64,000 nt of DNA from contig JAFULG010000003.1 of NCBI GenBank assembly GCA_017473435.1, positions 124,001 to 188,000 on the forward strand. Reading direction: 5' to 3'. This document shows positions 4,209 through 52,928 of this stretch, piece by piece. Source of the stretch: Clostridia bacterium. GTDB taxonomy: Bacteria; Bacillota; Clostridia; Oscillospirales; Acutalibacteraceae. Position 1 is the first letter of the stretch. Every line of letters starts with the position of its first letter. The notes under the pieces are model-generated. The model saw nothing but the letters and a program-made list of their open reading frames with translations, was not told the DNA's origin and ran no database searches. The position numbers were made by a program, and so were the translations under genes.

Positions 4209-4259
4209 AAAGTTCTTTGGTTACTTTCTTACAAGAAAGTAACGCCCCGCGGCGAGCGA
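4209..4259 (+). repeat. 3'-gene structured repeat, type A (copy A1)
   Basis: Lies 9 bp after the glgD stop. It has the box AAAGTTCTTTGG, a hairpin at 4220-4243 (GTTACTTTCTT / AAGAAAGTAAC, perfectly paired) and a GC-rich end CGCCCCGCGGCGAGCGA. The same architecture occurs at 5791, 10031(-), 25517, 32577, 51145 and 52873(-), with compensatory changes in the hairpin arms. Origin and function are unknown. Confidence 0.8.
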
Positions 4260-4265
4260 CAGTTA

Positions 4266-4320
4266 CAATTGCCCTCGCCGGGCAGGCAACACTTTTTTGA
4301 AAAAAGTGTTCAAAAAACTT
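4266..4320 (-). repeat. 3'-gene structured repeat, type C (copy C1), inverted to A1
   Basis: Read on the minus strand: AAGTTTTTTGA, then a hairpin AACACTTTTTT / AAAAAAGTGTT, then GCC...CGGCGAGGGC, so it is a diverged relative of the type A repeat. With A1 it forms a tail-to-tail pair filling the glgD-glgA gap. It is the one copy not placed behind a gene in its own orientation. Confidence 0.6.
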
Positions 4321-4358
4321 CCTCTTTTCGCATTTTTTCAGAAAGGACCACTTAAACT

Positions 4359-5783
4359 ATGAAAGTATTATACGTAGCAAGTGAGGCATTGCCCTTTATG
4401 GCCAGTGGCGGACTCGGCGATGTTGCCGGTTCGCTTCCTCAGGCTCTGCGCAAAAGACTTATCGGTTGCAGAGTCGTAATGCCTCTTTATGACACAATCA
4501 AGCAGGAATGGAAGGACAAAATGACCTTTGTTACAAACATTTCCGTTCCCGTTGCATGGAGAAGACAATACTGCGGCATCTTCCAGGCAAAGCACGAGGG
4601 CGTAATCTACTACCTCATCGACAACCAGTACTACTTCAAGCGTGACACGATCTACGGTCACTACGATGACGCGGAACGCTTCACCTTCTTCTCACGCGCC
4701 GTACTTGAAATTCTTCCCGTAGTTGACTTCAAGCCTGACATTATCCACTGTAACGACTGGCAGTCAGCTCTCACCCCTGTTTTCTACTCAACAATTTACA
4801 GCAAGGATCCCTGGTATCAGGGTATCAAAACTGTTTTCACAATCCACAACATCCAGTATCAGGGAACTTACGGTATGGAGCTTGTTAACGACGTTATCGG
4901 TCTCAATCCCGCTGATACCGACATTGTTGAATACGACGGTGACGTTAACTTTATGAAGGGCGCTATCGAATGTGCAAACAAGGTAACAACAGTTTCACCC
5001 TCTTATGCAAACGAAATCCTTGATCCCTGGTACAGCCACGGACTTGATACCATTCTCCGTGATCGTCAGTGGAAGCTTCAGGGAATCCTCAACGGTATTG
5101 ACACAATTAACTATGACCCCGAAACCGACGAAAGTATTGTAAGAAACTACACCGTTAAGGATGTAAAAGAAGGCAAAGCCGAAAACAAACGTCAGCTTCA
5201 GGAAAATATGGGTCTTCCCCAGCGAGCAGATGTGCCTGTTATCGGTCTTGTTACACGTTTGGTTTCTCACAAGGGACTTGATCTTATCAAGGGTATCCTT
5301 GACGAGCTTCTCTACACAAGCGATGTTCAGGTTGTTGTTCTCGGTTCAGGTGACTGGCAGTATGAAAACTTCTTTAAGGAGATGGCTAACAAATATCCCG
5401 ATAAGCTCGGCGTGAGAATCGGATTTGTTCCTTCTCTTGCAAGAAAAATTTATGCCGGCGCCGACCTCTTCCTTATGCCCTCCAAGAGCGAGCCCTGCGG
5501 ACTTTCACAGATGGTTGCTCTTCGCTACGGCACAGTACCAATCGTTCGTGAAACCGGCGGTCTTCGTGACTCAATTTCCGACAGCGGCGACGGCAAGGGC
5601 AACGGCTTCACCTTCAAAACCTACAACGCTCACGATATGCTCGGTGCCATCAGAAGAGGTCTTGACGCTTATGCTGACAAGGCTCATTGGGACGAGCTTG
5701 TCGTACGAGCAATGGAATGTGATTGCAGCTGGGGCAAGAGTGCAAACGAGTACATTAAGATGTACAAAGAGCTTTTAAAGTAA
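4359..5783 (+). CDS. glgA: glycogen synthase (ADP-glucose)
   Basis: GT5 glycosyltransferase that extends alpha-1,4-glucan from ADP-glucose. The N-terminal Rossmann domain opens with VLYVASEALPF and SGGLGDV, the ADP-glucose loop (family form KTGGLADV, here SGGLGD). FTIHNIQYQG lies near 163 and PSKSEPCGLSQM, with the conserved catalytic-region Glu, near 377. 474 aa is typical. The ribosome site AGAAAGGA lies just before the ATG. It is separated from glgD by 158 bp of inverted repeats, so it may have lower or separate expression from glgBCD. A module-bearing repeat follows the stop. Confidence 0.95.
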   Translation: MKVLYVASEALPFMASGGLGDVAGSLPQALRKRLIGCRVVMPLYDTIKQEWKDKMTFVTNISVPVAWRRQYCGIFQAKHEGVIYYLIDNQYYFKRDTIYGHYDDAERFTFFSRAVLEILPVVDFKPDIIHCNDWQSALTPVFYSTIYSKDPWYQGIKTVFTIHNIQYQGTYGMELVNDVIGLNPADTDIVEYDGDVNFMKGAIECANKVTTVSPSYANEILDPWYSHGLDTILRDRQWKLQGILNGIDTINYDPETDESIVRNYTVKDVKEGKAENKRQLQENMGLPQRADVPVIGLVTRLVSHKGLDLIKGILDELLYTSDVQVVVLGSGDWQYENFFKEMANKYPDKLGVRIGFVPSLARKIYAGADLFLMPSKSEPCGLSQMVALRYGTVPIVRETGGLRDSISDSGDGKGNGFTFKTYNAHDMLGAIRRGLDAYADKAHWDELVVRAMECDCSWGKSANEYIKMYKELLK

Positions 5784-5790
5784 AAACTCT

Positions 5791-5960
5791 AAAGTTCTTT
5801 GGCATCGTCGCCGAAGCGCGTCCTGCGGACGATAAAGCGAGGCGAGGATGGCATAGCGGTCAAAATCGCTCGGCGCTCCAAGCCGAAAAGCGATTTTGGG
5901 AACCACAAGAGGACTCTTTCTTTCAAGAAAGGTAACGCCACGCGGCGAGCGATAAAACAA
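5791..5960 (+). repeat. type A repeat carrying a ~110-bp inserted module (copy A2)
   Basis: Starts 7 bp after the glgA stop with AAAGTTCTTTGG (5791-5802). About 110 bp of extra sequence (about 5802-5910) follows, then the usual CTTTCTTTCAAGAAAGG hairpin core and GCGGCGAGCGATAAAACAA end. The module contains a CGTCCTGCGGACG palindrome and a CAAAATCGCT / AGCGATTTTG stem. The reverse complement of the same module sits inside the repeat at 39388-39558. Confidence 0.75.
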
Positions 5961-5980
5961 ATTATATAATTACAAACAGC

Positions 5981-6015
5981 AAAAGCAGGTGTAAGTCAGC
6001 ACCTGCTTTTGTCAT
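5981..6015. terminator. bidirectional intrinsic terminator, glgA/guaB
   Basis: Perfect 11-bp stem AAAAGCAGGTG / CACCTGCTTTT with T-runs on both sides, lying between convergent glgA and guaB. Confidence 0.75.
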
Positions 6016-6031
6016 TGTCTTTATATAAAAA

Positions 6032-6094
6032 AGTTAAGGGGGCGTTGCCCACTTAAACCCCTATGAGCTTTTGTAAAAGCTCAACCAAAACTTT
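6032..6094 (-). repeat. 3'-gene structured repeat, type B (copy B2)
   Basis: On the minus strand it begins 10 bp after the guaB stop: AAAGTTTTGGT, hairpin GAGCTTTT-AC-AAAAGCTC, then GGGGTTTAAG and the imperfect GGGC/GCCC hairpin. It pairs tail-to-tail with copy A2. Related copies are at 25646-25703 and 39388-39558. Confidence 0.7.
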
Positions 6095-6104
6095 ACTTTT
6101 TTAA

Positions 6105-7684
<1,580 letters not shown>

Positions 7685-7747
7685 GACCTAAACAGAATTT
7701 TTTTGTAAAATTTATTATTTATAACGCCTTATTAAAGATTTTACCCC

Positions 7748-7776
7748 TTGACCCATTCGGAATACTGTTATATAAT
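7748..7776 (+). promoter_or_regulatory. trpS promoter
   Basis: TTGACC (7748-7753), 17-bp spacer, TATAAT (7771-7776). The start codon is only about 38 bp downstream, leaving no room for a T-box leader. Confidence 0.8.
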
Positions 7777-7814
7777 ACTTAAAATAAAGCAATCTCCCGA
7801 AAGGATGACATAAA

Positions 7815-8846
7815 ATGGAAGAAAAAATCATCGTTCCCGAAAATGAACAGCCTGAAAGAAAAAAGAAGATTCTTTCCTGCATTCAGCCCTCGGGCATTCC
7901 TACCCTCGGCAACTACCTCGGAGCTCTCAAAAACTGGAAGCTTCTTTCCGATGAGTTTGACTCTGCCTTTGCTGTTGCTGACCTTCACGCAATTACTGTA
8001 AGACAGGACCCCAAAAAGCTCCGTCAGCAGATTACAGAGGTTTTCGCTCTGCTGCTTGCAATCGGCCTTGACCCTGACAAAAGCATAATTTTCATTCAGA
8101 GCCAGGTGCCGGCTCACGCACAGCTTGCATGGATTCTCAACTGTTACACACAGTTCGGTGAAATGTCAAGAATGACACAGTTCAAGGATAAGTCACAGTC
8201 CCACGCCGACAACGTAAACGTAGGCCTTTTCTCCTACCCCGTGCTTATGGCGGCTGATATTCTTCTTTATCAGGCAGACCTTGTTCCCGTTGGCGCAGAC
8301 CAGAAGCAGCACCTTGAAATTGCAAGAGACATTGCTTCACGCTTCAACGGAATTTACGGCAAGACCTTCACCATTCCTGACCCCTACATCGGCAAGCAGG
8401 GTGCAAGAGTTATGTCACTTCAGGATCCTATGAAAAAGATGAGCAAGTCCGACCCGAATCCCAAATCCTTTGTTTCGGTTTTTGACGAGCCTAATACCAT
8501 TATGAAGAAAATCCGCAGTGCCGTTACCGACTCCGAGGGCGGAGTTTACTACGGTGAGGGCAAGGAAGGCATCAATAACCTTATGGGCATTTACTCCTGC
8601 TGCACGGGACTTTCAATGGAGCAGATTGAAAGAGACTTTGCCGGCAAGGGCTACGGCGATTTCAAAAACGCTGTCGGTGAGGCTGTTGTTGAAGAGCTTC
8701 GTCCCGTCCGCGAGCGTTTCAATATGCTGATGAAGGATCAGGCATATCTGATGCAGCTTGCAGACAAGGGAGCTGAGAACGCTTCACGCATTGCTGACAG
8801 AACGCTTCACAAGGCAATGAAAAAGTGCGGATTTATTGTGAAGTAA
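7815..8846 (+). CDS. trpS: tryptophanyl-tRNA synthetase
   Basis: Class I aminoacyl-tRNA synthetase charging tRNA-Trp. The signature QPSGIPTLGNYLGAL (24-38; HIGH-equivalent region) and KKMSKS (207-212) are both present, with ADLHAIT (55-61) and VGADQKQHLE lining the active site. 343 aa is normal. The ribosome site AAAGGA is 9 bp before the ATG. Monocistronic between its own promoter and a terminator. No T-box is visible, which is unusual for a Clostridia aminoacyl-tRNA synthetase gene but not rare. Confidence 0.96.
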   Translation: MEEKIIVPENEQPERKKKILSCIQPSGIPTLGNYLGALKNWKLLSDEFDSAFAVADLHAITVRQDPKKLRQQITEVFALLLAIGLDPDKSIIFIQSQVPAHAQLAWILNCYTQFGEMSRMTQFKDKSQSHADNVNVGLFSYPVLMAADILLYQADLVPVGADQKQHLEIARDIASRFNGIYGKTFTIPDPYIGKQGARVMSLQDPMKKMSKSDPNPKSFVSVFDEPNTIMKKIRSAVTDSEGGVYYGEGKEGINNLMGIYSCCTGLSMEQIERDFAGKGYGDFKNAVGEAVVEELRPVRERFNMLMKDQAYLMQLADKGAENASRIADRTLHKAMKKCGFIVK

Positions 8847-8859
8847 GAACAAAAAATCA

Positions 8860-8899
8860 GCTCACGGAAGAAGAAATTCTCCGTGAGCCTTTGTTTTTT
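8860..8899. terminator. bidirectional terminator, trpS / secreted hydrolase
   Basis: GCTCACGGA / TCCGTGAGC stem with TTTGTTTTTT on the plus side and GATTTTTTG on the minus side, between convergent genes. Confidence 0.85.
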
Positions 8900-9905
8900 A
8901 TAATCCGAAAAATGCAAGGATTTTATCGAACAGATTTCGAATAAAAGCGATAATCTTCGCAAATCCTGTAACTGTTTTACCCTCTTCAGCCTTATCGTTA
9001 GTCTGAAGTGAAAGCCAGCTTATAATTCCGTCAGGACTTTCAAAAGTGATTGTGTTACCTAAACCGTCAACAGTTGTTGAATAGTAGAACTGCTCACCCG
9101 AGTCCATAAACATATCATTTGTAACAGCACCCCAGATGTAATGCTCCTTGTCGTGGGCATCCTGCTTCAGACCGGATGCCCACACAGCCTCGGTGAAGGA
9201 TGTGAAGCGTAAGCCCTCAGGGCGGTTGGTGATTTCCTTAAGGTAATCAAAGGTCGTTACAGCCATAGCGGTTGTTGCACTCGCGTAAAAGTCCTTATCG
9301 CAGTTAAATGTCCAGATTGAAGTATCTGCAAGCTTTTCAATCTCACCCGAGGTGGGATTATAAAGGGAAGCAATAGGCATAGCAGCCGCAAAGAAATCGG
9401 GATACTTCGTCACCATATGCCACACCATTGAGCCGCCGGTTGAATAACCGCTTATGTAAATGCGTGAGGTATCAATTTTATCAGCGTTTACTGAAACAAA
9501 ATAATCAATAGTCGCCTTAAGGGATGCACAGCCAGTTTCGTACCAGTTGTGGGTAATATCCTTTGAGGAGCGGGGTGCAAGGAGAAATGCTCCGCCTGCA
9601 TTTTTAAAGCGTGACTGATATTCGGGTGATGCCCAGTTGCTGAATCGGTACCACTCGAGCTGTGCTCTCGGCTTATCGCCCGATTTTGCACCGTGAAGCC
9701 ATATCATAAGGGGATACTTCTCACCCTTCTTGACCTCGGGTGAATAATAAACATAATCTAACTCACCGGGGCATTCTCCGTCAAGGAACCATGTGTCAAG
9801 CACATCGTTGCCGATTGAGAGGCTTTCAGCGGAAGCGGAAAAGCTCAACGCTACACAGCCTGCAAGCATAAGCGCGCACATTAAAACCGAAATAATCTTT
9901 TTCAT
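8898..9905 (-). CDS. exported alpha/beta-hydrolase (esterase, PHB-depolymerase-like) with amphipathic C-tail
   Basis: Predicted secreted serine hydrolase. An N-terminal signal peptide ends near SFSASA|ES; an LAGC at 14-17 also fits a lipobox, so lipoprotein processing is possible. An LHGA oxyanion-region motif (70-73) and the nucleophile elbow GYSTGG (Ser155) place it with polyhydroxybutyrate-depolymerase or feruloyl-esterase-like hydrolases. The catalytic His is probably within DAHDKEH. The last ~20 residues (FAKIIAFIRNLFDKILAFF) form an amphipathic tail like those of the proteins at 27079, 44035 and 51624. 335 aa. The substrate is unknown; a plant cell-wall ester or peptide is plausible. 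Ribosome site GGAGG. Confidence 0.75.
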   Translation of the reverse strand: MKKIISVLMCALMLAGCVALSFSASAESLSIGNDVLDTWFLDGECPGELDYVYYSPEVKKGEKYPLMIWLHGAKSGDKPRAQLEWYRFSNWASPEYQSRFKNAGGAFLLAPRSSKDITHNWYETGCASLKATIDYFVSVNADKIDTSRIYISGYSTGGSMVWHMVTKYPDFFAAAMPIASLYNPTSGEIEKLADTSIWTFNCDKDFYASATTAMAVTTFDYLKEITNRPEGLRFTSFTEAVWASGLKQDAHDKEHYIWGAVTNDMFMDSGEQFYYSTTVDGLGNTITFESPDGIISWLSLQTNDKAEEGKTVTGFAKIIAFIRNLFDKILAFFGL

Positions 9906-9935
9906 AATATTTCCTCCATATCATTTCTTGAGCAA

Positions 9936-9964
9936 ATTATAACAGAATGTAACGATTGTGTCAA
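9936..9964 (-). promoter_or_regulatory. promoter of the secreted hydrolase gene
   Basis: Minus strand TTGACA (9964-9959), 17-bp spacer, TATAAT (9941-9936). Both hexamers match consensus. Confidence 0.85.
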
Positions 9965-9980
9965 TGAAATATGCATGCAA

Positions 9981-10013
9981 AAAGGTCACGGATTTATCTT
10001 TTTCCGTGACCTT
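9981..10013 (-). terminator. terminator downstream of the BIG2 protein gene
   Basis: GGTCACGG / CCGTGACC stem followed on the minus strand by TTTTTGC. It follows repeat copy A3. A near-identical hairpin follows copy A4 at 25589-25630. Confidence 0.7.
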
Positions 10014-10030
10014 TACATTTGCAAAAATTT

Positions 10031-10088
10031 GTTTTATGACCTCGCCGGTCGGGCGTTCTTTCTTGTAAGAAAGAACCAAAGAACTTTT
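10031..10088 (-). repeat. 3'-gene structured repeat, type A (copy A3)
   Basis: Minus strand: AAAAGTTCTTTGG, hairpin GTTCTTTCTT-AC-AAGAAAGAAC, then GCCCGACCGGCGAGGTCAT and AAACAAA, starting 7 bp after the stop of the gene at 10095. It is almost the same subtype as copy A4. Confidence 0.8.
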
Positions 10089-10094
10089 CTTGTT

Positions 10095-12740
10095 TTATCT
10101 TTCAACAAGCATATTATGATATCTGCCCATCCAATAAGGAAGTGAATAAGTTGTTGAGCCTTCCATTTCACCGGGATTATACGCTCCGTCCATCACATAG
10201 CTTGAGCCGTTGTACTTGTGGAGTGCTCTTTCATCAGCAGGAGCAACTGCCCACTCATACTTTGTAAGTCCGATAATCATACCGATAAGCTTAAGAGTCT
10301 GATTATCTGAATTCCAGAAGGGAGGAACATAACCGTCTGCACTGAAGGAAAGCTCCTCTGTTTCACCGATGCCCACATCGTCAAGGTCAAGCTCATATAT
10401 ATCGTCACGCTTGGAGTTACTTGCACCGAGGCGGCGAAGATCAATGGGATGACGGTTAACTACCCATGCGGCTGTGTCAACAAGGTTGTTGCCGTAGGCG
10501 TCAGTCTTAACCTCATCGGGATATGCAAGCTGATAAATATAGTACCAGAGTGCGTTTTCACTGAAGCTCATTGAATACCACCAGCTGTCAATTGCCTCTC
10601 TGTAATAAGCGAGAAGCTCCTCATCATCCTCAAGCTGGAAAAGAGTGTAGAAGCCGAGCATTGCCATTTCCTCGTCAGAATAGTTGAGGATAATTCTGTA
10701 AAGCGTATTGAAAAGCTTTGTGCCCACAAGAGGACGGAGAATAAAGCCGAGAACGGGTGAAACGCCGTTAACAACCTCAAGGATGCACATATCATAACGA
10801 TCCTTATTCTGAGTCATAATCTCTGCAAACTCATAGCTTTCATCAAGAGCTGCCATCCTATACTCGTCTTCCCACTTCTGATTGCCTGTAATGTAAGCGG
10901 CAACCTTAAAGCCGGTAAGCATAACAAGTGCATTAAGTCCTGCGCCGCCGAGAACCTGTCCGTTGTGGAAATAGGTTCTTGAGAACTTTGCCCATGTTGT
11001 AGGCTGACCTGAGCCGTCTACCATTGTGTATGAGTTATCCGAAAGATGCTGAGCAAACTTTTCCATTGTTTCCTCAAGCATTGCCTTTAATTCGGGATCC
11101 TCCGGAGCAAGGATATCATAAGCGAGCTTGTAAAGGAAAAGGTGACCGATAATTTCATCGGAGCTTGTGTCGCCCTTATAAACAATATCAGAAACATCGT
11201 AATCGGCACCGATAAGGTCATTCCAGAGCCTTTCGGGAATTGTGCCTGTAGCGTTCACCTTAAGACCTCTGTAGTTTTCATTATGGAGAAGGAAGTCGCT
11301 TCCGTCACCGTAGGTCTTTGTTGACATACCCGTTGCGGTGCCGTCACCGTTGTGTGACCAGTAAGCATATCCGTCATAGTCGCTGTGACCTGCTTCCTTC
11401 TCACTCTTGAAGGAATAGGTTCTTGCCCAGAAGCCTTCAAGGAGTCTTGTGCGCATTGCATACTCACCTTCGGTGGTATTGGGATCTGCCCAGCCCTCTG
11501 TATTGAAAAGAGCAAGGTTGTCATTTCCCTCAAAGTCCTGAACGTAGGAGCGCTTACCCGACTTCATATATTTTTCGTGCATTTCCGTAAAAGCATCGGC
11601 AGGACTCATAAAAGGAATATTCTGTGAATAGTCACCGCCTACAAGCATTGCCTCATTGGTGTAATACTTACCCTTTTCGTAGTCGTTTGCACTGCCGTTT
11701 CTCTGTGCACGGCTATAAGCTTCAACTGTGCCCTCACGCATTGAGATATATGTAAGAAGAAGCACAGCCTCAACGGAAAGAGTTGCTGTCTTTCTTGCGG
11801 CTTCAATTTCTTCCTTTGTAGCATTGGGATCGTTTTTGAGCACGGCGTAACGCATAAGCTCACCGCCACCGTACATTGATGTCCAGAGACCGTCGTTATC
11901 GCTTTCCTCGGGAATCCATTCACCGTCAATAAGATAAGCATTGGAAACCATACCGCGTCTAGCAACATACTTCTGTGTTTCCTCACTCATCATTGCCGCC
12001 TTGTCAGTACCGCTGATAGGAAGCATTTCGATATGTGAATAGCCTTCCTCCATAACTGTCCAGATACCATTTTCACCATCGGCAAAAATAGCAAGCACCT
12101 TACCGTCGGTCGTATCGTTTGCGTAAAAATATCTGTCGCCCATAAAGCGCTGCTCAACGTCTCTTTCGTTTTCAGCCTTTTCATCTGTACGGAGCACACC
12201 GTAAGCAGTAATTTCCCACTTCGCACCGTCTGCTGTTACAGCAGTCTGAGCCTCAGCGTATTTTGATGCATCGGAAACCTCAGCAGGAACATCCTTACTA
12301 TCCTTTTCGTAACGGGTAACAATCTTCTGAAGGTTTGAGCTTTCCTTTACTGCCTCACCGGTAAAATCCACCTTCTTAAGGCCATTCTCCTTAAGCTTGG
12401 TGCTTTCTTTTACAACCTTAAGTTTAACACTATCTGTAACGCCGTCGCTGTTTTCCGCAGTGATTACGGCTTCACCCTCCTTGAGAGCGGTAATTCTGCC
12501 CCAGATGTCAACGCTTGCAACATCGGCAGGCTGAACATTCCAGGAAAGAACTCTGTTTTCTGTATTCGCCATTACGGAGTCAATAGTTCTGCTGTCGCCG
12601 ATTTCAAGCTCCCAGTTTTCAGGAACGATAAGCCTTAAAACAGCTTCGTCATTTGTGACGTTTCCGTCCGTTGCCATTGCCGGCACACACAGGCCCATAA
12701 GCATAACAAGTGCAAGCAATAAGGCTATGATTTTCTTCAT
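10095..12740 (-). CDS. large secreted protein with BIG2-like domain and predicted helical-toroid region
   Basis: Not recognised as a named family. A clear signal peptide (MKKIIALLLALVMLMGLCVPAMA) is followed by a BIG2-like Ig domain (about 30-110: LRLIVPENWELEIG, SWNVQPADVASVD, ALKEGEAVITA). The remaining ~750 residues are rich in aromatic and helical segments (GLWTSMYGGGELMRYAV near 290, TSSDEIIGHLFLYKLAYDIL near 525, DGSGQPTTWAKFS), reminiscent of (alpha/alpha) toroid folds of polysaccharide lyases or heparinase-like proteins. No catalytic set could be assigned. 881 aa. Ribosome site AAAGGAGAG. It has its own promoter and probably acts outside the cell or at the wall. Confidence 0.65.
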   Translation of the reverse strand: MKKIIALLLALVMLMGLCVPAMATDGNVTNDEAVLRLIVPENWELEIGDSRTIDSVMANTENRVLSWNVQPADVASVDIWGRITALKEGEAVITAENSDGVTDSVKLKVVKESTKLKENGLKKVDFTGEAVKESSNLQKIVTRYEKDSKDVPAEVSDASKYAEAQTAVTADGAKWEITAYGVLRTDEKAENERDVEQRFMGDRYFYANDTTDGKVLAIFADGENGIWTVMEEGYSHIEMLPISGTDKAAMMSEETQKYVARRGMVSNAYLIDGEWIPEESDNDGLWTSMYGGGELMRYAVLKNDPNATKEEIEAARKTATLSVEAVLLLTYISMREGTVEAYSRAQRNGSANDYEKGKYYTNEAMLVGGDYSQNIPFMSPADAFTEMHEKYMKSGKRSYVQDFEGNDNLALFNTEGWADPNTTEGEYAMRTRLLEGFWARTYSFKSEKEAGHSDYDGYAYWSHNGDGTATGMSTKTYGDGSDFLLHNENYRGLKVNATGTIPERLWNDLIGADYDVSDIVYKGDTSSDEIIGHLFLYKLAYDILAPEDPELKAMLEETMEKFAQHLSDNSYTMVDGSGQPTTWAKFSRTYFHNGQVLGGAGLNALVMLTGFKVAAYITGNQKWEDEYRMAALDESYEFAEIMTQNKDRYDMCILEVVNGVSPVLGFILRPLVGTKLFNTLYRIILNYSDEEMAMLGFYTLFQLEDDEELLAYYREAIDSWWYSMSFSENALWYYIYQLAYPDEVKTDAYGNNLVDTAAWVVNRHPIDLRRLGASNSKRDDIYELDLDDVGIGETEELSFSADGYVPPFWNSDNQTLKLIGMIIGLTKYEWAVAPADERALHKYNGSSYVMDGAYNPGEMEGSTTYSLPYWMGRYHNMLVER

Positions 12741-12790
12741 AAATAACTCTCCTTTTGTGTTTTTTCGTCAGCTTAACTGACTTCTTTTAC

Positions 12791-25516: not shown

Positions 25517-25576
25517 AAAAGTTCTTTGGTTCTTTCTTACAAGAAAGAACGCCCGACCGGCGAGGTCATCAAACAA
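25517..25576 (+). repeat. 3'-gene structured repeat, type A (copy A4)
   Basis: 6 bp after the trmB stop: AAAAGTTCTTTGG, hairpin GTTCTTTCTT-AC-AAGAAAGAAC, then GCCCGACCGGCGAGGTCATC and AAACAAA. Same subtype as copy A3 on the other strand 15 kb away. Confidence 0.8.
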
Positions 25577-25588: not shown

Positions 25589-25630
25589 AGGGTCACGGAA
25601 ATGATAAAATCCGTGACCCTTTGCTTTGTT
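25589..25630. terminator. bidirectional terminator, trmB / M28 peptidase
   Basis: GGGTCACGG / CCGTGACCC stem flanked by A- and T-runs. It is nearly identical to the hairpin after copy A3 (9981-10013). Confidence 0.75.
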
Positions 25631-32576: not shown

Positions 32577-32640
32577 AAAAGTTCTTTGGGTCACCTTTCT
32601 TTCAAGAAAGGTGACGCCCCGCAGCGAGCGATAAAACAAT
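32577..32640 (+). repeat. 3'-gene structured repeat, type A (copy A5)
   Basis: Downstream of the nifJ terminator: AAAAGTTCTTTGGG, hairpin GTCACCTTTCTT-TC-AAGAAAGGTGAC, then GCCCCGCAGCGAGCGATAAAACAA. It is the only type A copy that follows rather than precedes the terminator. Confidence 0.8.
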
Positions 32641-44736: not shown

Positions 44737-44755
44737 TAGATAAAGAAAAAAATTA

Positions 44756-45376: not shown

Positions 45377-45407
45377 AATTTTCACCTCGCAAACAAATTT
45401 AAAAAAA

Positions 45408-45461
45408 TGCAGAATCCGAATACAGAATCAATTCCGAATTCCGTGCTCCGAATTCCGCATT
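45408..45461. repeat. CGGAATTC-type short repeats
   Basis: Imperfect iterations of TCCGAATTC/GAATCCGAA between yfbR and pduL, with ATGCAGAATCCGAA at one end and TCCGAATTCCGCAT at the other, so the segment can fold as an imperfect hairpin. No coding potential. Confidence 0.5.
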
Positions 45462-45487
45462 AAATTATATTTTATTCAGTCCGTCAA

Positions 45488-46060: not shown

Positions 46061-46101
46061 AATGTTTGTCCTCCAATTATTTATAATTTTATTTCTTTAC
46101 T

Positions 46102-47022
46102 TTACCAGAGCTTTTCGGGATAAACTCCGTCATTTACTTTTTCGTTAAGAGCCTGCTTTACAAACGCCTTATCCTCTTTATAGGTAACTCCGTACCATTT
46201 TTCCGTAGTTTCAAGTACCTTTACCTCTGCCTTACCTTCCTTGAGAAGCTCATCAACAACAAAAGGAATGAAATACTCACACTTGAGAGGATTCTCCTTT
46301 ATGCCCTTTTCGAGAAAAGCGGCAAATCTATTTTCAAGCTCTGCCATCATCTCTGTTGAAAAACCCCAGCAGTTCATTGATACTGTTGTACCCTCAGGAA
46401 TATCTGTCCAGGTTGCGCCATCATCCTCAGTAAACTGGATTTTATCACCGTTTATTGCAATCTTTGTTCTTTCAACAATATCAGTAAGATATCCTCTGTC
46501 ATCGGTCTGGCACACGCCTCTTGCGACGCTTCCGTTTTCGGTAAGAGTGTTTTCAACCCTGAAGCCTACCATGCAGAAATCATACTTGTCGCTTTTACCG
46601 CCTTCTTTTATAAGCTCCTGATGCACAAGACGGAAGGTTTCCTTTCCGTAATAATCATCAGCGTTAATAACAGCAAAAGGACCGTCAACTATATCTCTGC
46701 AAGCAAGTACAGCCTGTCCTGTACCCCAAGGCTTAACTCTGCCCTCGGGAACGGTGAAGCCTTCCGGAAGATCATTCATATCCTGGAACGCATAAGCAAC
46801 CTCGATTTTGTCGTCATATCTGCCGTCAGTGATTTTTCTGAAATCCTCTTCGATTTCGTGCTTGATTACAAAAACGACCTTGTCAAATCCTGCTTCAGCC
46901 GCATCGTAAACCGAATAATCAAGAATGATTTCTCCTGAAGGTCCGACGGGATCAATCTGCTTAAGGCCGCCATATCTGCTTCCCATACCTGCAGCCATAA
47001 CAATAAGAGTTGTCTTTTTCAT
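46102..47022 (-). CDS. NDP-sugar/choline-type nucleotidyltransferase
   Basis: 306-aa sugar-phosphate nucleotidyltransferase: VMAAGMGSRYGGLKQIDPVG (about 7-26) is the nucleotide loop, VINADDYYG the metal Asp region, and VARGVCQ and EYFIPFVVDELL lie further on. It lacks the C-terminal beta-helix of GlgC. Start at MKKTTLIVM with AGGAG upstream (frame open to 47082). The substrate cannot be assigned from sequence; relatives in gut Firmicutes sit beside N-acetylhexosamine or choline kinases such as the one at 61780. Confidence 0.85.
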   Translation of the reverse strand: MKKTTLIVMAAGMGSRYGGLKQIDPVGPSGEIILDYSVYDAAEAGFDKVVFVIKHEIEEDFRKITDGRYDDKIEVAYAFQDMNDLPEGFTVPEGRVKPWGTGQAVLACRDIVDGPFAVINADDYYGKETFRLVHQELIKEGGKSDKYDFCMVGFRVENTLTENGSVARGVCQTDDRGYLTDIVERTKIAINGDKIQFTEDDGATWTDIPEGTTVSMNCWGFSTEMMAELENRFAAFLEKGIKENPLKCEYFIPFVVDELLKEGKAEVKVLETTEKWYGVTYKEDKAFVKQALNEKVNDGVYPEKLW

Positions 47023-47053
47023 TATAAGAATCTCCTCTTTTGATTTTTTTATT

Positions 47054-47082
47054 ATTGTACCACTATTTTTTAAAAAACGCAA
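47054..47082 (-). promoter_or_regulatory. promoter of the nucleotidyltransferase gene
   Basis: Minus strand TTGCGT (47082-47077), 17-bp spacer, TACAAT (47059-47054). Confidence 0.55.
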
Positions 47083-47134
47083 TATTTTAAACTATTTATT
47101 AGATTTTATCAAAAATTTACTTACAGGTTAAATC

Positions 47135-47163
47135 TTGACACTGCCGCATTTTAATGATATTAT
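47135..47163 (+). promoter_or_regulatory. promoter of the 43-aa microprotein gene
   Basis: TTGACA (47135-47140), 17-bp spacer, TATTAT (47158-47163). Confidence 0.7.
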
Positions 47164-47195
47164 AATATTGTAAATAAATAAAAGGAGTTGTAACT

Positions 47196-47327
47196 ATGGA
47201 TAATATGAATAAGGTTCTTGACCTCATCACAATGATTTTTGACACAATCAGAAAATATATTCTCCTCGTTCTCGGCAGAGAAGGCGAAATCGAAGGAGAG
47301 GTTCCCAAGTTTCCCTGGGATAAATAA
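47196..47327 (+). CDS. 43-aa amphipathic microprotein
   Basis: Monocistronic short gene with a consensus -35, an AAAGGAG ribosome site 8 bp before the ATG and its own terminator, so it is almost certainly expressed. The sequence has an amphipathic helix (VLDLITMIFDTIRKYILLVL) and an acidic then aromatic tail (EGEIEGEVPKFPWDK). Layout parallels the 39-aa microprotein at 43897. It could bind membrane; toxin-like or signalling roles are possible but unsupported. Confidence 0.75.
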   Translation: MDNMNKVLDLITMIFDTIRKYILLVLGREGEIEGEVPKFPWDK

Positions 47328-47351
47328 AGAACCGTCATAACATCAAAAATG

Positions 47352-47404
47352 AAACAGATGTATTTCAAGGCAATAACACACCTTAAAATGCATCTGTTTT
47401 TTAT
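47352..47404. terminator. bidirectional terminator, microprotein / MgtC-like
   Basis: AAACAGATG / CATCTGTTT stem with a 30-nt loop, T-run TTTTTTATTTT on the plus strand, adjoining the stop of the MgtC-like gene on the other strand. Confidence 0.65.
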
Positions 47405-47405
47405 T

Positions 47406-48128
47406 TTAATCTACATAAAGATCCCTTATACCCTCAAGTGAGCGTATGGCAGAAATCGTAAGTCCGAAGCCTTCCTCGTCGCGAGGGAACACAACAGCCT
47501 TCATAACAACGGAATCGCTTTTTCTCTTTGTCGGTGAAGAGTCTGCATAAAGCACCTCAAGGGTGTGCAGGTTTCCGCCGTAACGTTTTACTATTGTTCC
47601 GATTTCAGCCGCCTGGCGCGACATATTTTCTGCCTCAATGTAAATATTTTTAGACGGGTTACCTCTTGCGACAAAACGCTTAAAGGTGTTAAGTGTAAGA
47701 TAAATGAACAGTGTTGTTACAAGTGCACCTACATAATAACCGGCACCCACAGCAAGACCTATGCAGGAAACCGCCCAGAGTGAAGCTGCCGTTGTAAGTC
47801 CTTTAACCGAAAATCCCTCACGAAGAATTGTACCTGCGCCAAGGAAACCGATACCGCTGATTACCTGAGCGCCCAATCTCGTCGGATCAAAGCTGGCAAG
47901 ACCCTCATATTCAAGGAAAACATACTTTGACGTCATCATTACAAGGGTTGAGCCTACTGCCACAAGAATGTGTGTTCGGAATCCTGCAGGACGGTGAGAG
48001 TGTTCTCTTTCGTAACCGATGATACCGCTGAAAAGAACCGTAAGCAGCATTTTCACAACAGCATCAAGTGCATATTCAACCTGAGGCAGATTCACAAAAT
48101 CCTGCACAGCGTTCCACAAGCTATCCAC
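47406..48128 (-). CDS. MgtC/SapB family membrane protein
   Basis: About five membrane helices then a soluble ACT-like C-terminal domain. The family core GYEREHSHRPAGFRTHILVAVGS and GAQVISGIGFLGAGTILREGFSVKGLTTAASLW is complete. Linked in other bacteria to Mg2+ limitation and acid adaptation, possibly through effects on F-type ATPase. A GTG at 48128 is chosen as start because AAAGGAG lies 9 bp upstream; an ATG at 48137 would abut it. 240 aa. No M-box riboswitch recognised in the leader. Confidence 0.9.
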   Translation of the reverse strand: MDSLWNAVQDFVNLPQVEYALDAVVKMLLTVLFSGIIGYEREHSHRPAGFRTHILVAVGSTLVMMTSKYVFLEYEGLASFDPTRLGAQVISGIGFLGAGTILREGFSVKGLTTAASLWAVSCIGLAVGAGYYVGALVTTLFIYLTLNTFKRFVARGNPSKNIYIEAENMSRQAAEIGTIVKRYGGNLHTLEVLYADSSPTKRKSDSVVMKAVVFPRDEEGFGLTISAIRSLEGIRDLYVD

Positions 48129-48160
48129 CGCGGACATCTCCTTTCAAAACAATAAAATCG

Positions 48161-48183
48161 CACCGAACACATAACGTTCGGTG
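48161..48183 (-). other. leader hairpin of the MgtC-like gene
   Basis: CACCGAAC / GTTCGGTG stem followed on the minus strand by CGATTTTATTGTTTT, about 33 bp before the start. It could be an attenuator or simply a leader stem. Confidence 0.4.
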
Positions 48184-48284
48184 TCACATCAATATCAATT
48201 TTATTAATTATATCACCGCTATTCAAAAAAAGCAACTATCAATTATTAACAAAATACCCTTTAATTATAAGTATATTAAAACAG

Positions 48285-48313
48285 TTGAAAACTTTTTGTT
48301 TTTATGGTAGAAT
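48285..48313 (+). promoter_or_regulatory. secA promoter
   Basis: TTGAAA (48285-48290), 17-bp spacer, TAGAAT (48308-48313). Confidence 0.7.
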
Positions 48314-48363
48314 ATAACATTATGTATTATATAAACTTAATTACTATAAATGAGGTGACATAA

Positions 48364-51120
48364 ATGGGCTTTCTTAAAAAGCTGTTCGGTGACTACTCCG
48401 CAAAGGAAATCAAAAGAGTAAAGCCTCTTGTACAAAAGGTGCTCTCCTATGAAGAAGACTTTGCAAAGCTTACCGACACAGAGCTCAAAGCAAAAACTCC
48501 CGAATTCAAGGAAAGGCTTGAAAAGGGTGAAACTCTTGATGACATTCTCCCCGAAGCATTCGCCGTATGCCGTGAGGCTTCCTGGCGCGTACTCGGTATG
48601 AAGCACTTCCCCGTACAGATTATGGGCGGTATTGTTCTTCATCAGGGCAGAATAGCTGAAATGAAAACAGGTGAAGGTAAAACCCTTGTTGCTACCCTTC
48701 CTGCATATCTCAACGCTCTTTCAGGCAAGGGCGTTCACATTGTTACCGTCAACGACTACCTCGCCCGCCGAGACAGCGAGTGGATGGGTAAAGTTTACCG
48801 CTTCCTCGGACTTACCGTAGGACTTATCGTAAACGGACTTGACAACACCGAACGTCGCAAGGCTTACGCCGCAGACATCACCTACGGCACAAACAACGAA
48901 ATGGGCTTTGACTATCTTCGTGACAATATGGTACTTTACCTCGACCAGAAGGTACAGAGAGGTCACAACTACGCCATCGTCGACGAAGTTGACTCAATCC
49001 TTATAGACGAGGCAAGAACTCCTCTTATCATTTCCGGTATGGGCGGTAAATCCTCGGAGCTTTACTCCGTTGCAAACAGCTTTGTAAACACTCTCAAGTG
49101 TCTTAAAATTGCCGAAACCGACTCAAAAATGAATCTCGAGGATCTTGCCGCAGAAAGCGGTGCAGACTACATCGTAGATGAAAAGCACAAGAGCTGTAAC
49201 CTTACAAAGAGCGGTATTCAGAAGGCTGAGCGCTTCTTCAACATTCAGAACCTTTCCGATCCTGAAAACCTTACTCTTTCACATCACCTTAACATCGCCA
49301 TCAAGGCTCACGGCGTTATGACAAGAGATATCGACTACGTTGTAAAGGACGGTCAGGTGCTCATCGTTGACGAGTTCACAGGCCGTATTATGCTCGGCAG
49401 ACGCTACAACGACGGTCTTCATCAGGCAATCGAAGCCAAGGAAGGCGTAAAGGTTGCCCGCGAAAACAAAACCCTCGCAACCATCACCTTCCAGAACTAT
49501 TTCCGTCTTTACAGCAAGCTTTCCGGTATGACCGGTACAGCTATGACCGAGGTTAACGAATTCAGAGAAATCTACTCTCTTGACGCCGTTGAAATTCCCA
49601 CAAACAAACCTCTTCTGCGCAAAGACAACAACGACGTTATTTTCCAGACAGAGCAGTACAAGTTCAACGCTATTATTGAACAGATTTTACAGTGTCATGA
49701 AAAAGGTCAGCCCGTGCTTGTAGGTACAATCTCCATTGAAAAGAGTGAGAAGCTTTCTGCCGCCCTTAAGAGACGCGGTATAAAGCACAACGTGCTCAAC
49801 GCAAAGCACCACGATAAGGAAGCCGAAATTGTTGCACAGGCAGGTAAGCTCGGTGCAGTTACAATTGCAACCAACATGGCAGGTCGTGGTACCGATATTA
49901 TGCTCGGCGGTAACGCTGAATTCCTTGCAAAGAGTCAGATGAGAAAAATGGAATACTCCGAGGAGCTCATCAGCGAGGCAACAGCCTTCGGTGACACCGA
50001 CAACGAGGATATTATCGAGGCACGTGAAACCTTCAAGCGCCTTGAGAAGCAGTACAAAGAGGAAATAGCTGAGGAAGCTGAAAAGGTACGCGAAGCAGGC
50101 GGTCTTTACATCATCGGTACAGAGCGCCACGATTCAAGACGAATCGACAACCAGCTCAGAGGCCGTAGCGGACGTCAGGGTGACCCCGGTGAAAGCCGCT
50201 TCTTCCTTTCAATGCAGGATGACCTTCTCCGTCTTTTCGGCGGCGACAGAATGATTGCCATTATGAACAGTATGCCCGTTGACAAGGATACACCCATTGA
50301 AAACGGTATGCTTTCAAAGCAGGTTGAGGGTGCACAGCGTAAGGTTGAGGGCAACAACTTTGCCGCACGTAGACACGTTATCTCCTTTGACGACGTTATG
50401 AACCGTCAGAGAGAAATTATTTACACTCAGCGTGATCAGGTGCTCAAGGGTGAGGATATGAAGCCCGTCATCACAAAAATGATTGACGATTCAATCGGTG
50501 ACACCGTTGAATTCTTCTGTCCTGCAAATGTTCCCTCAAGCGAGTGGCATCTCCCCTCACTCAAGGAAAAATACATGGGCTGGCTTACAACCGAGGATGA
50601 TTTCACCGAGGACAGAAAATACAAGCCCGAGGAAATCTACGATACCCTCACAGACCGTGCTCACAAGCTTCACGAGGAGCGCGAGGAGCTTTACGGCGAG
50701 GAAATGATGCGTAACATTGAGCGTGAGATGCTCCTTCGCAACGTTGATATGAAATGGATGGATTACATCGACGCTATGGATGAATTAAAGCGCAGCGTAG
50801 GACTTCTTGCCTACGGTCAGAAGGACCCCGTTGTTGCCTTCAGAGAACTCAGCTATGATATGTTCGACGAAATGACAACCTCAATCCGTGAGGATACAGT
50901 AAAGACCGTACTTGCTGTACGCTTCAAGACCGACGAGGAAATCAAGCGTGAGGAGGTTGCAAAAATCACCTCAACCTCAACCGGCGGTGACGGAAGCGAA
51001 AAAGCAAGACCCGTAAAGAACGAGGGCAAGAAAATCGGCGTTAACGATCCCTGCCCCTGCGGAAGCGGTAAGAAATACAAGAAGTGCTGTGGAAGACCCG
51101 GTGCGGAAGCACAGGGCTGA
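48364..51120 (+). CDS. secA: preprotein translocase ATPase SecA
   Basis: Motor of Sec-dependent export. [20 protein letters not shown] (Walker A, about 100-119), [20 protein letters not shown] (Walker B region), [14 protein letters not shown] and [20 protein letters not shown] (motif VI) are intact, and a C-terminal zinc-binding [18 protein letters not shown] motif is present. 918 aa. Essential, and needed for the many signal-peptide proteins encoded here. A type A repeat and terminator follow. Confidence 0.97.
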
Positions 51121-51144
51121 TAACCAAAAAAGAGAACAAAATGT

Positions 51145-51198
51145 AAAGTTCTTTTGATTACTTTTCTTTCAAGAAAAGTAATGCCATGCGGCGAGCGA
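51145..51198 (+). repeat. 3'-gene structured repeat, type A (copy A6)
   Basis: 25 bp after the secA stop: AAAGTTCTTTTGA, hairpin ATTACTTTTCTT-TC-AAGAAAAGTAAT, then GCCATGCGGCGAGCGA. The hairpin arms differ from the other copies but remain fully complementary. Confidence 0.8.
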
Positions 51199-51214
51199 AA
51201 AAAGCTATTCATAC

Positions 51215-51247
51215 AAAAAGCTGTGGGGTTTTCCACGGCTTTTTTGT
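51215..51247 (+). terminator. secA terminator
   Basis: AAAAAGCTGTGG / CCACGGCTTTTTT stem ending in a T-run. Confidence 0.8.
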
Positions 51248-51258
51248 TGACAAAATTT

Positions 51259-51300
51259 AAACCCACCGCCTGATTTTAGTTTTCAGGCAGTGGGTTATTT
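51259..51300. terminator. hairpin at the end of the Xre regulator gene
   Basis: AACCCACCGCCTG / CAGGCAGTGGGTT stem (one mismatch) overlapping the regulator stop codon, with modest T-tracts on both sides. Confidence 0.6.
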
Positions 51301-51501
51301 TATATCTGTTCTTTCTAAAATATAATCTGTTGAGGTGTTATAAAGATCAGCGAGAGCTATAAGGACATCCGACGGAATATCACGGTAACCTTTTTCGTAG
51401 CGGTTATACTGCGGCTGTTTCATTTTAAGGTAATCCGCAACCTGTTGTTGGGTCATATCGCTGTCCTCGCGCAAATCACGGATTCGCTTATAATATCCCA
51501 T
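51295..51501 (-). CDS. Cro/C1-type (Xre) transcriptional regulator
   Basis: 68-aa DNA-binding protein: RIRDLREDSDMTQQQVADYLKMKQPQYNRYEKGYRDIP is a full HTH_3 domain and the end LADLYNTSTDYILERTD is typical of stand-alone Xre repressors. Divergent from the secreted protein gene at 51624; two matched operator-like dyads lie in the gap, so autoregulation and control of that gene are likely. Confidence 0.88.
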   Translation of the reverse strand: MGYYKRIRDLREDSDMTQQQVADYLKMKQPQYNRYEKGYRDIPSDVLIALADLYNTSTDYILERTDIK

Positions 51502-51521
51502 TAAATCACCGCCTCAAAGTC

Positions 51522-51543
51522 AATATAATCGTTTGGTTATATT
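51522..51543. promoter_or_regulatory. operator-like dyad 1
   Basis: AATATAATC-gttt-GGTTATATT, 9-bp half-sites with one mismatch, overlapping the -35 box of the plus-strand promoter. Confidence 0.65.
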
Positions 51544-51571
51544 GACATTTTATATTATTGGGTGATATAAT
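51542..51571 (+). promoter_or_regulatory. promoter of the zinc-ribbon-repeat secreted protein gene
   Basis: TTGACA (51542-51547), 18-bp spacer, TATAAT (51566-51571), flanked by the two dyads. Confidence 0.8.
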
Positions 51572-51578
51572 ACCTTAT

Positions 51579-51600
51579 AATATAACCGTATGGTTATAAA
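51579..51600. promoter_or_regulatory. operator-like dyad 2
   Basis: AATATAACC-gtat-GGTTATAAA, the same half-site as dyad 1, centred 57 bp away and lying at the expected transcription start. Confidence 0.65.
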
Positions 51601-51623
51601 TATTTTGAAGGAGAAAGAAAAGA

Positions 51624-52571
51624 ATGAGATAATTAACAAGAATTTTATTATCAACAGCAATTTCAATGCTTATGCTGACACTGTGTTGCTTTGAAGCAAG
51701 CGCACTTGAAGATGTGTGTGAACATAGTAGTTTGTCCCAAGATACTGACTATTACATAGGAGATTGCACCTTGGGTGGCGAATTACACTATTACTGCGAT
51801 TTTTGTTTTGAAGAAATATTTGTAACAGTAGAACCCAAAGAACACAACTTAGAAGATTATGAAGAACCTGATTCCTCAACATTCTGTGGAACACAAACAA
51901 TTTATGTTCCTTGTAATGACTGTTCCAGTTTGGTCACAATGACCATTGAAGGAACTCAAAAACATGAATGGGAACCAGATTTCATGTCGCCTACTGATGT
52001 TATTAACAACTGCAACGAAGGCGGAAAATTGCCTTATTATTGTTGCTATTGCGATTCCACAATAGAAGAATACATAGCCCCACAAGAACACTCTATAGAT
52101 TGGATATTTAACAATGATGCAACCTGCACAAAAGACGCCACAAAAACCGCGTATTGTGGAATGTGTCATGAAGGATTTTTTAACAAATTAGAAACCGTTC
52201 CTGTTGAAGGCACCGCACTCGGTCATAACTACAACGAAGAATGGACATTCCTCTTACCTGCAACCTGCACCGACAGAGGCGTACAGATAACAACCTGTAC
52301 CCGTTGTTCAGATATAAAATCCGAGGTTCTTCCTGCAACAGGTCATACAGATAACAACAGCGATAATATCTGTGACGAATGCAACGCAAAGCTTTCAGAT
52401 ACAACCGTTCCCGATGACACCAACCCGGACGATGGCACAACCGATACACCGGAAACACCCGACGAGCCTACAGAGCCCGAAGAACCCAAGAGGGAAGCTA
52501 ATGTATTCTCCTTCCTTACAGAATTCCTGAATAACATTATTGATTTCTTCAAAAAATTATTCAAGCTTTAA
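51624..52571 (+). CDS. secreted Cys-pair repeat protein with amphipathic C-tail; third codon is a stop
   Basis: Exported protein with about five CxxC zinc-ribbon-like units (CDFC, CNDC, CCYC, CGMC, CTRC, CDEC, alternating with ATCT and GH elements such as LGHNYNEEW and ATGHTDNNSDNICDEC), a Thr/Pro/Asp/Glu-rich linker and the amphipathic ending FLTEFLNNIIDFFKKLFKL. The ribosome site (GAAGGAGAA) serves the ATG at 51624, but codon 3 is TAA (51630-51632). Past it the frame gives LTRILLSTAISMLMLTLCC, a normal signal peptide, so M-R-stop-L-T-R was probably M-R-K-L-T-R. Without read-through, translation could only restart at the ATG at 51666, with a defective signal. AT-rich codon use differs from its neighbours. 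Confidence 0.65.
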
Positions 52572-52581
52572 TAAACAGCAA

Positions 52582-52616
52582 AAGGTCGCAGCTTAAAACT
52601 GCGACCTTCGTTTTTG
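52582..52616 (+). terminator. terminator of the zinc-ribbon-repeat gene
   Basis: AAGGTCGCAG / CTGCGACCTT stem followed by CGTTTTTG. Confidence 0.85.
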
Positions 52617-52650
52617 TTTGCGGAGCAACGAGGGCTTCGCTCCCTGCGTT

Positions 52651-52809
52651 TTACATCTCAGGCTTGCTCGGCCCTTGGCTCTCGGCCCTCGGCCCTTTCA
52701 TATAAATCTTTCCGCCCGGCTGCTTTTTACCGTTGGTCTTTGCATCGTACTCACGGATAAAGCCTTCGATTTTTTCGAAGTTGTACGGGTCTTTTTTGCT
52801 GTTTTTCAT
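52651..52809 (-). CDS. 52-aa hydrophilic protein whose C-terminus lies in a repeat
   Basis: Start MKNSKKDPYNFEKIEGF with GAGGGTG 7 bp upstream. Charged and soluble, with no family recognised. The last ~14 residues (GPRAESQGPSKPEM) are encoded by a GGGCCGAG-type repeat also found at 39275, so the reading frame seems to have captured repeat DNA as its C-terminus. Moderate coding evidence. Confidence 0.5.
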   Translation of the reverse strand: MKNSKKDPYNFEKIEGFIREYDAKTNGKKQPGGKIYMKGPRAESQGPSKPEM

Positions 52810-52872
52810 TTTCTCACCCTCTGTTATTTTGTGTAATAAAGAAGTGAAAATTAAAAGCAATTTTTTCTTTTT

Positions 52873-52928
52873 TTCGCTCGGCGCGCGCCGTTACCTTTCT
52901 TGTAAGAAAGGTAACCCAAAGAACTTTT
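52873..52928 (-). repeat. 3'-gene structured repeat, type A (copy A7)
   Basis: Minus strand, 6 bp after the dCMP deaminase stop: AAAAGTTCTTTGG, hairpin GTTACCTTTCTT-AC-AAGAAAGGTAAC, then GGCGCGCGCCGAGCGA. Confidence 0.8.

What the first reader, a model, noticed from the sequence alone, without database searches (positions are those of the whole stretch)
4209..52928. Superfamily of structured repeats attached to the 3' ends of genes, with covarying hairpins
Seven type A copies (4209+, 5791+, 10031-, 25517+, 32577+, 51145+, 52873-) share AAAGTTCTTTKG, a hairpin built round CTTTCTTNCAAGAAAG, and a GC-rich end containing CGAGCGA or GGCGAG. The outer arm bases differ between copies (GTTAC/GTAAC, GTTC/GAAC, GTCACC/GGTGAC, ATTACTT/AAGTAAT) but stay complementary, so the structure, not the sequence, appears conserved. 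All seven read in the direction of the gene that precedes them; six begin within about 25 bp of its stop codon, and the nifJ copy lies beyond that gene's terminator. A random mobile repeat would not be expected to keep one orientation, so a role in 3'-end formation, mRNA stability or RNA-protein binding is plausible.
Basis: seen in the sequence. Interest (0 to 1): 0.85.

Follow-up and report, generated by a model that had tools for sequence, protein, structure and literature searches.

The report
Triple-helix RNA tails behind bacterial genes
One bacterial genome carries at least 145 copies of a short repeat, most of them starting within 40 bases after a gene's stop codon and pointing the same way as the gene, whose sequence is predicted to fold in the messenger RNA into a triple helix plus a pseudoknot and would likely protect the end of the message from digestion.

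Summary
The seven copies belong to a family with 149 model matches in this genome (145 distinct places at E up to 0.01; a floor). In 135 of 149 the preceding called gene is on the same strand, and 120 start within 40 nt of its stop codon; random intergenic points give 11.9%. All 20 close pairs are tail to tail, and 116 of 148 precede a terminator-like hairpin. The 5' motif matches the hairpin's purine arm letter for letter in parallel (203 of 221 readable copies; never antiparallel only), the signature of a pyrimidine-motif triple helix. The GC-rich end is an H-type pseudoknot, fully paired in 205 of 257. Orthologous genes in a related species often keep the element with a different but self-consistent sequence. 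No Rfam family matches at threshold. Most likely it is a dispersed 3'-UTR RNA module that protects mRNA ends; the main rival is a REP-like mobile DNA. The hairpin alone fits class IV intrastrand triplex motifs (Holder 2015); strict 3'-end placement and the pseudoknot are new. All functions are untested.

The parts
4209..4259 (+). Copy 1: third strand AAAGTTCTTTGG, hairpin GTTAC..GTAAC, pseudoknot GCC-C-CGC-GGC-GA-GCG; 8 nt after the stop of the 3097-4200 ORF (nucleotidyltransferase with GlmU-like hexapeptide domain)
5791..5952 (+). Copy 2, interrupted: third strand 5791-5802, 113 bp palindrome-rich insert 5803-5915, then hairpin core 5916-5931 and pseudoknot to 5952; 7 nt after a starch/glycogen synthase ORF (stop 5783)
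10038..10087 (-). Copy 3: GACC/GGTC pseudoknot type; after the 881-aa ORF 10095-12740
25518..25567 (+). Copy 4: GACC/GGTC pseudoknot type; after a Methyltransf_4 ORF (TrmB-like, name recalled; stop 25510); terminator-like hairpin at 25591-25618
32578..32631 (+). Copy 5: hairpin GTCACC/GGTGAC, pseudoknot with one first-stem mismatch; 114 nt after the pyruvate:ferredoxin oxidoreductase ORF, beyond a terminator-like hairpin
51145..51198 (+). Copy 6: hairpin ATTACTTTTC/GAAAAGTAAT; 24 nt after the secA stop (51120)
52874..52927 (-). Copy 7: GGC/GCC first-stem type; after the deaminase ORF 52934-53431

Best explanation
It is a dispersed element, at least 145 copies in this genome, that sits mostly within 40 nt after stop codons and before a terminator-like hairpin, and is predicted to fold in the mRNA 3' untranslated region into a pyrimidine-motif triple-helix hairpin followed by an H-type pseudoknot, which likely blocks 3'-to-5' exonucleases and so would stabilise the message. 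Steps seen in the sequence: copy number, orientation, stop-codon anchoring, tail-to-tail pairs at convergent genes, a following terminator-like hairpin, covariation of the hairpin, parallel letter matching of the third strand, and covariation of the pseudoknot stems. Inferred steps: transcription as part of the 3' UTR; formation of U.A-U and C+.G-C triples in the RNA major groove, where the short linker would cross the deep groove of the outer stem as pseudoknot loops do in A-form RNA (recalled geometry, not modelled); stalling of PNPase- or RNase R-like enzymes just outside the footprint of a terminating ribosome, so that the reading frame and stop codon stay intact. Dispersal between genes is inferred from copy-number variation; its enzyme is unknown.
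For: Orientation and anchoring: 135/149 same-strand upstream gene, 120/149 within 40 nt, against 11.9% of 3000 random intergenic points; 129/149 have an open frame of 60+ codons ending within 60 nt upstream, mirror control 34/149. Replicates in the genus: G015 34/38, G025 25/28, mixed others 28/30, G023 7/11. 20/20 close pairs are convergent, and in 14 both members follow their own gene's stop by 34 nt or less. Terminator-like hairpin within 130 nt downstream in 116/148, letter-shuffled 10, reverse direction 21/149. Third strand: full-length parallel match in 203/221, antiparallel-only 0, parallel-only 81; 18 of 32 mixed-sequence genotypes against permutation mean 8.9, maximum 14 in 5000; further variants in relatives; two informative column pairs 100% matched against at most 66% when slid. 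Pseudoknot: fully paired in 205/257; permuted second-stem partners mean 38, maximum 56; first stem, two flipped types, mean 172, maximum 181. Same gene in G015: 99 reciprocal-best pairs with readable 3' ends, both carry it 19, G000 only 15, G015 only 3, neither 62 (Fisher p 1.5e-8). Of 18 parsed shared pairs the third strand differs in 10, and in 8 of those both still match; the pseudoknot differs in 14, both fully paired in 10. Precedents: 3' stem-loops block 3'-5' exoribonucleases (PMC7509114, passages); the MALAT1 3' triple helix is protective (PMC11411715, abstract start in listing); pyrimidine intrastrand triplexes form in RNA (PMC4666352, introduction passages).
Against: No RNA data: transcription, folding and any effect on decay are untested. 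A terminator hairpin already follows most copies and could itself block exonucleases. Copy number among genomes of one genus runs from none detected to about 149, so it is dispensable. The triplex hairpin without pseudoknot occurs in other families next to start codons or facing other ways, and the anchoring is absent in G007 (0 of 2 with flank) and G058 (0 of 3), so the hairpin itself does not imply a 3'-end role. C+.G-C triples need protonation, and the commonest types have one. Eighteen of 221 copies lack the full third-strand match and 52 of 257 a fully paired pseudoknot. In 14 of 149 the nearest upstream called gene is on the other strand, and 11 overlap a called ORF (simple longest-ORF rule). 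In one search two of the five measures (number of covarying pairs 63/500, further types 500/500) do not exceed shuffles, having only two column pairs. Energy folding is only moderately better than shuffles (z -1.8 to -4.2).
Confidence: 0.45

Rival explanations
1. A REP-like mobile DNA repeat: the triplex hairpin and pseudoknot are single-stranded DNA structures read by a transposition enzyme, and the 3'-end placement reflects insertion at stop-codon-proximal sites plus removal of harmful insertions.
For: Copy number differs greatly between species; secA of the best-scoring named relative (85% identical) lacks it; the related hairpin sits elsewhere in other families; in G007 the hairpin is carried in a longer dispersed non-coding repeat; REPIN doublets are inverted pairs (PMC3116915, passages), as the 20 pairs here are.
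Against: No link with Y1 transposases: 12 of 19 element-bearing and 9 of 15 element-free genus genomes have one (Fisher p 1.0), and the 2-3 kb loci of the own-genome Y1 matches carry no copy. Single copies outnumber paired ones (109 to 40) and mostly keep the third-strand match (88 of 97 readable). In 14 of 20 pairs each member follows its own gene's stop by 34 nt or less. Structure is kept at sites shared with G015. A linker of 0-1 nt across 3-6 bp suits A-form RNA better than B-form DNA (recalled geometry).
Confidence: 0.3
2. A 3'-UTR landing site for an RNA-binding protein or trans-acting RNA that co-regulates the tagged mRNAs, with the triplex and pseudoknot as recognition surface.
For: Loop bases GA in 198 of 205 fully paired pseudoknots, near-constant AAAG leader and spacing.
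Against: Tagged genes in the window differ in function (glycogen metabolism, methyltransferase, PFOR, secA, deaminase); gene sets are only partly shared between species.
Confidence: 0.15
3. It is a terminator or part of 3'-end formation.
For: Location near gene ends.
Against: In the copies printed no T run follows the hairpin directly, and a separate terminator-like hairpin with T run follows in 116 of 148.
Confidence: 0.05

Closest known systems
Intrastrand triplex motifs (PIT elements, ITxF class IV; Holder et al. 2015, PMC4666352; sections 15, 16, first part of 20 and passages read)
   Same: Hoogsteen strand at the 5' end, then pyrimidine arm, then purine arm in one strand; dispersed intergenic copies with large differences between related genomes.
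   Different: [quoted passage not shown] Here: A/U-rich pyrimidine motif, fixed orientation after stop codons, attached pseudoknot, covarying third strand.
REP / REPIN elements with RAYT transposases (PMC3116915, passages; others in listing)
   Same: High-copy extragenic hairpins with a conserved 5' tag (tag recalled); some inverted pairs.
   Different: No RAYT/Y1 link, single copies are the rule, strict gene orientation, triplex and pseudoknot.
Eukaryotic ENE / MALAT1 3'-end triple helices (PMC11411715, abstract start; ENE details recalled)
   Same: Triple helix at or near an RNA 3' end (here predicted).
   Different: Third strand comes from 5' of the hairpin, no poly(A) tract is involved, and it lies between stop codon and terminator.
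Riboswitches with triplex pseudoknots (SAM-V, PMC6061858, abstract start in listing)
   Same: H-type pseudoknot and major-groove triple helix in bacterial RNA.
   Different: There the triplex is part of the pseudoknot and binds a ligand (5' leader position recalled); here triplex and pseudoknot are separate and 3' of genes.

Membership tests
Intrastrand triplex motif, class IV | 5' Hoogsteen pyrimidine strand, pyrimidine arm, purine arm, with a parallel stem of 6-15 nt | tested here: met
   203 of 221 full-length parallel matches of 5-9 nt; the 8 with a 5-nt tract fall short. The loop-length limit of 1-6 nt was not applied
Intrastrand triplex motif, class IV | Triplex actually forms | not testable with these tools
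   sequence only
REP/REPIN | Co-occurring RAYT/Y1 transposase with flanking copies | tested here: not met
   no association in 34 genus genomes; own-genome Y1 loci without copies
REP/REPIN | Inverted doublets as the main unit | tested here: not met
   40 of 149 copies in 20 pairs
Intrinsic terminator | GC-rich hairpin directly followed by a T run | tested here: not met
   copies read; a separate terminator-like hairpin follows in 116 of 148
H-type pseudoknot | Two crossing stems supported by covariation | tested here: met
   strongest for the second stem
Any Rfam 15 family | Match to a covariance model at its gathering score | tested here: not met
   window at gathering score gave only a tRNA; 7 loci at E up to 1 gave one overlap with an element, L20_leader on L302, E 0.64, 24 bits against a gathering score of 58.7
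ENE-like stability element | Protects RNA from 3' decay | not tested
   needs experiment

The most novel reading that the evidence does not exclude
Bacteria of this genus cap many of their mRNAs with a portable triple-helix-plus-pseudoknot knot directly behind the stop codon, a bacterial counterpart of the eukaryotic 3'-end triple helix, spread from gene to gene and kept at the same genes while its sequence is swapped.
Probability: 0.35. Interest if true: 0.88.

Novelty: new variant of a known kind. Interest (0 to 1): 0.78.

Why it matters
If the fold forms, this is a natural RNA triple helix with hundreds of copies and a third strand whose sequence follows the duplex, a rich data set for triple-helix rules. 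It would also be a 3'-UTR module spread through one genus, testable with ordinary reporter and probing experiments, and a case where one can ask whether a dispersed repeat became a working part of mRNAs.

Tried and rejected
Third strand pairing antiparallel with the hairpin arm: a full antiparallel match exists in 122 of 221 copies, always beside a parallel one, never alone. Third strand pairing with A-rich sequence downstream: own-copy runs equal permuted ones in G000 (4.28 against 4.29) and G015 (4.47 against 4.48), are about equal in G023 (5.18 against 5.12) and slightly higher in G025 (4.90 against 4.65) and mixed others (5.57 against 5.33), so a minor role in relatives is not excluded. 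RAYT/Y1 link: none. Phage or viral origin: one window copy has no match in 50,697 phage records, and one exact subtype pattern has none in viral contigs. Named carriers: model R1 finds none in 80 secA loci of named relatives. Clean empty sites: by eye, 3' regions of orthologs without the element could not be aligned, so insertion boundaries and target duplications are undetermined. Literature: nine searches listed no description of this element that I recognised; the 224-motif paper that I wanted is not held, so absence from print is not established.

Limits: the own-genome count is a floor because 150 candidates were scored (149 at E up to 1, 146 at 0.01); one palindromic site is matched on both strands. 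Gene calls are a longest-ORF rule. Of 266 copies collected, 9 were dropped for no hairpin and 36 more for no readable third strand or purine tract before the parallel count. The pseudoknot parser picks the best fit, and its permutation test uses the 205 already paired copies. The ortholog sets were sampled around elements, some reciprocal best pairs are weak (down to 24% identity), and some one-sided calls are decayed or missed copies. In one search my type label lumped unreadable copies with the T type; one search repeats that count without them.
Full report
WHAT IS THERE. The seven reported copies are real. In the genome that holds the window (2.56 Mb, 91 contigs) the 12-base motif occurs 78 times, with none for the pattern read backwards. 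A covariance model built from 75 copies, 67 of this genome and 8 of relatives, finds 149 matches at E up to 1, 146 of them at E up to 0.01, with only 150 of 2,665 candidates scored, so the count is a floor. One palindromic site is matched on both strands. I fetched and printed all 149.

ANATOMY. An A-rich leader ending in AAAG is followed by a 5-9 nt pyrimidine tract, a G, a hairpin whose upper half is pyrimidine on the 5' arm and purine on the 3' arm and whose outer pairs vary, then G(C/G)C, 0-2 nt, a 3-5 nt arm, G(G/C)C, GA, and the complement of that arm. The outer hairpin pairs covary.

TRIPLE HELIX SIGNATURE. The pyrimidine tract is a mirror, not an inverted or direct, repeat of the hairpin's 5' arm, so it matches the purine arm base for base in parallel (T with A, C with G). 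TTCTTT goes with AAGAAA, TTCTTTT with AAGAAAA, TTTTTTT with AAAAAAA in this genome; relatives add TTCTTTTT, TTTTCTTTT, CTTTCTTTT, CTTTCTTTC and CTCTTTT with their matching purine arms. Full-length parallel matches: 203 of 221 readable copies; antiparallel only: none. On 28 aligned rows the two informative column pairs match in every row and lose this when slid. This is what a pyrimidine-motif triplex requires; the fold itself is predicted, not shown.

PSEUDOKNOT. First stem GCC/GGC (187) or GGC/GCC (18) and 24 kinds of second stem are fully paired in 205 of 257 copies. ViennaRNA, which cannot draw pseudoknots, gives the hairpin plus one or other of the two stems in the four window copies tested.

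PLACE. 135 of 149 copies follow a same-strand gene, 120 within 40 nt of its stop, against 11.9% at random. With a direct frame test 129 of 149 have a stop within 60 nt, mirror control 34; 34/38 in G015, 25/28 in G025, 28/30 in mixed others, 7/11 in G023, but 0/2 in G007 and 0/3 in G058. In 17 or 18 copies the motif overlaps the stop codon. All 20 close pairs are tail to tail; one further pair was a single palindrome seen on both strands and was dropped. Pair members differ in triplex type in 13 of 14 pairs readable on both sides, where 62% would be expected (p 0.011). A terminator-like hairpin with T run follows 116 of 148.

SPREAD AND AGE. 18 of 33 other genomes of the genus have matches at E up to 0.01, from 1 to 68, the rest none; these are incomplete assemblies. 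Of 25 genomes from other genera only one, G058, had weak matches. Of 295 genomes of the order (own included) 12 match; I read 24 of the 26 listed non-own places and by eye all show the triplex hairpin without pseudoknot. In the loci examined it lies by start codons, faces the other way or lies elsewhere. Exact-pattern searches show sparse, lineage-specific expansions (4 of 391 genomes of the class and 7 of 295 of the order, own included) with no match for the reversed pattern. SecA of the best-scoring named relative (85% identical, a roe deer rectum Clostridia MAG) runs from stop to terminator without the element. Yet between this genome and G015 the element is shared at the same genes far above independence (19 both, 15 and 3 single, 62 neither of 99). 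At 17 of 18 parsed shared genes the sequence has changed in at least one part, while both copies keep the third-strand match in 16 and the pseudoknot in 14. Gain, loss and sequence exchange thus go together with retention of structure.

HOW IT LIKELY WORKS. Structure, orientation, distance to the stop and a terminator-like hairpin beyond it point to an mRNA 3' element. A triplex-clamped hairpin and a tight pseudoknot right behind the space a terminating ribosome needs would stop 3'-to-5' exonucleases before they reach the stop codon. Known 3' stem-loops and triple helices protect RNA in this way (PMC7509114, passages; PMC11411715, abstract start). This step is inference. The REP-like rival explains copy-number variation and the other placements of the hairpin, but not readily the pseudoknot, the per-gene anchoring of pairs, or the structure kept at shared sites; it lacks a linked Y1 transposase.

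COMPARISON AND NOVELTY. By form the hairpin part fits class IV intrastrand triplex motifs, 4% of the motifs in that survey (PMC4666352, section read). The example studied there had no strand bias and was treated as DNA. I found no report of an orientation-fixed, stop-codon-anchored triplex plus pseudoknot family in nine searches of an open-access library, which is not proof of absence.

Noticed in passing
window 5803-5915; L034, L057, L066, L074, L076, L087: A second, GC-richer palindrome-rich repeat of about 110 bp or more (GGCATCG...AGAGGACT) interrupts several copies at or near the hairpin, in either orientation.
   Followed up: partly
downstream of elements, e.g. window 25591-25618: The terminator-like hairpins recur as families in the fetched 470 kb (GGTCACGG..CCGTGACC 17 copies, 16 of them within 200 nt behind an element; CACCG..CGGTG 32, 22 behind; GCAGGTG..CACCTGC 13, 9 behind).
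   Followed up: partly
convergent pairs, e.g. L190, L211: The two copies of a tail-to-tail pair are of different triplex type in 13 of 14 readable pairs, as if complementary tails are avoided.
   Followed up: partly
L304 1501-1876, L351 434-647: In relative G023 copies stand in tandem about 130-146 bp apart.
   Followed up: no
L352, L164, L298, L305: In relative G007 the triplex hairpin lies in a longer dispersed non-coding repeat near contig ends, with a GTCC-GCAA-GGAC hairpin in place of the pseudoknot.
   Followed up: partly
L383-L392 (G481, G346): Two genomes of other families in the class have their own expansions of a TTTTTTG // AAAAAAG triplex hairpin, 26 and 12 exact copies.
   Followed up: partly
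window 10095-12740, minus strand: 881-aa ORF without any Pfam match at E up to 0.001.
   Followed up: no
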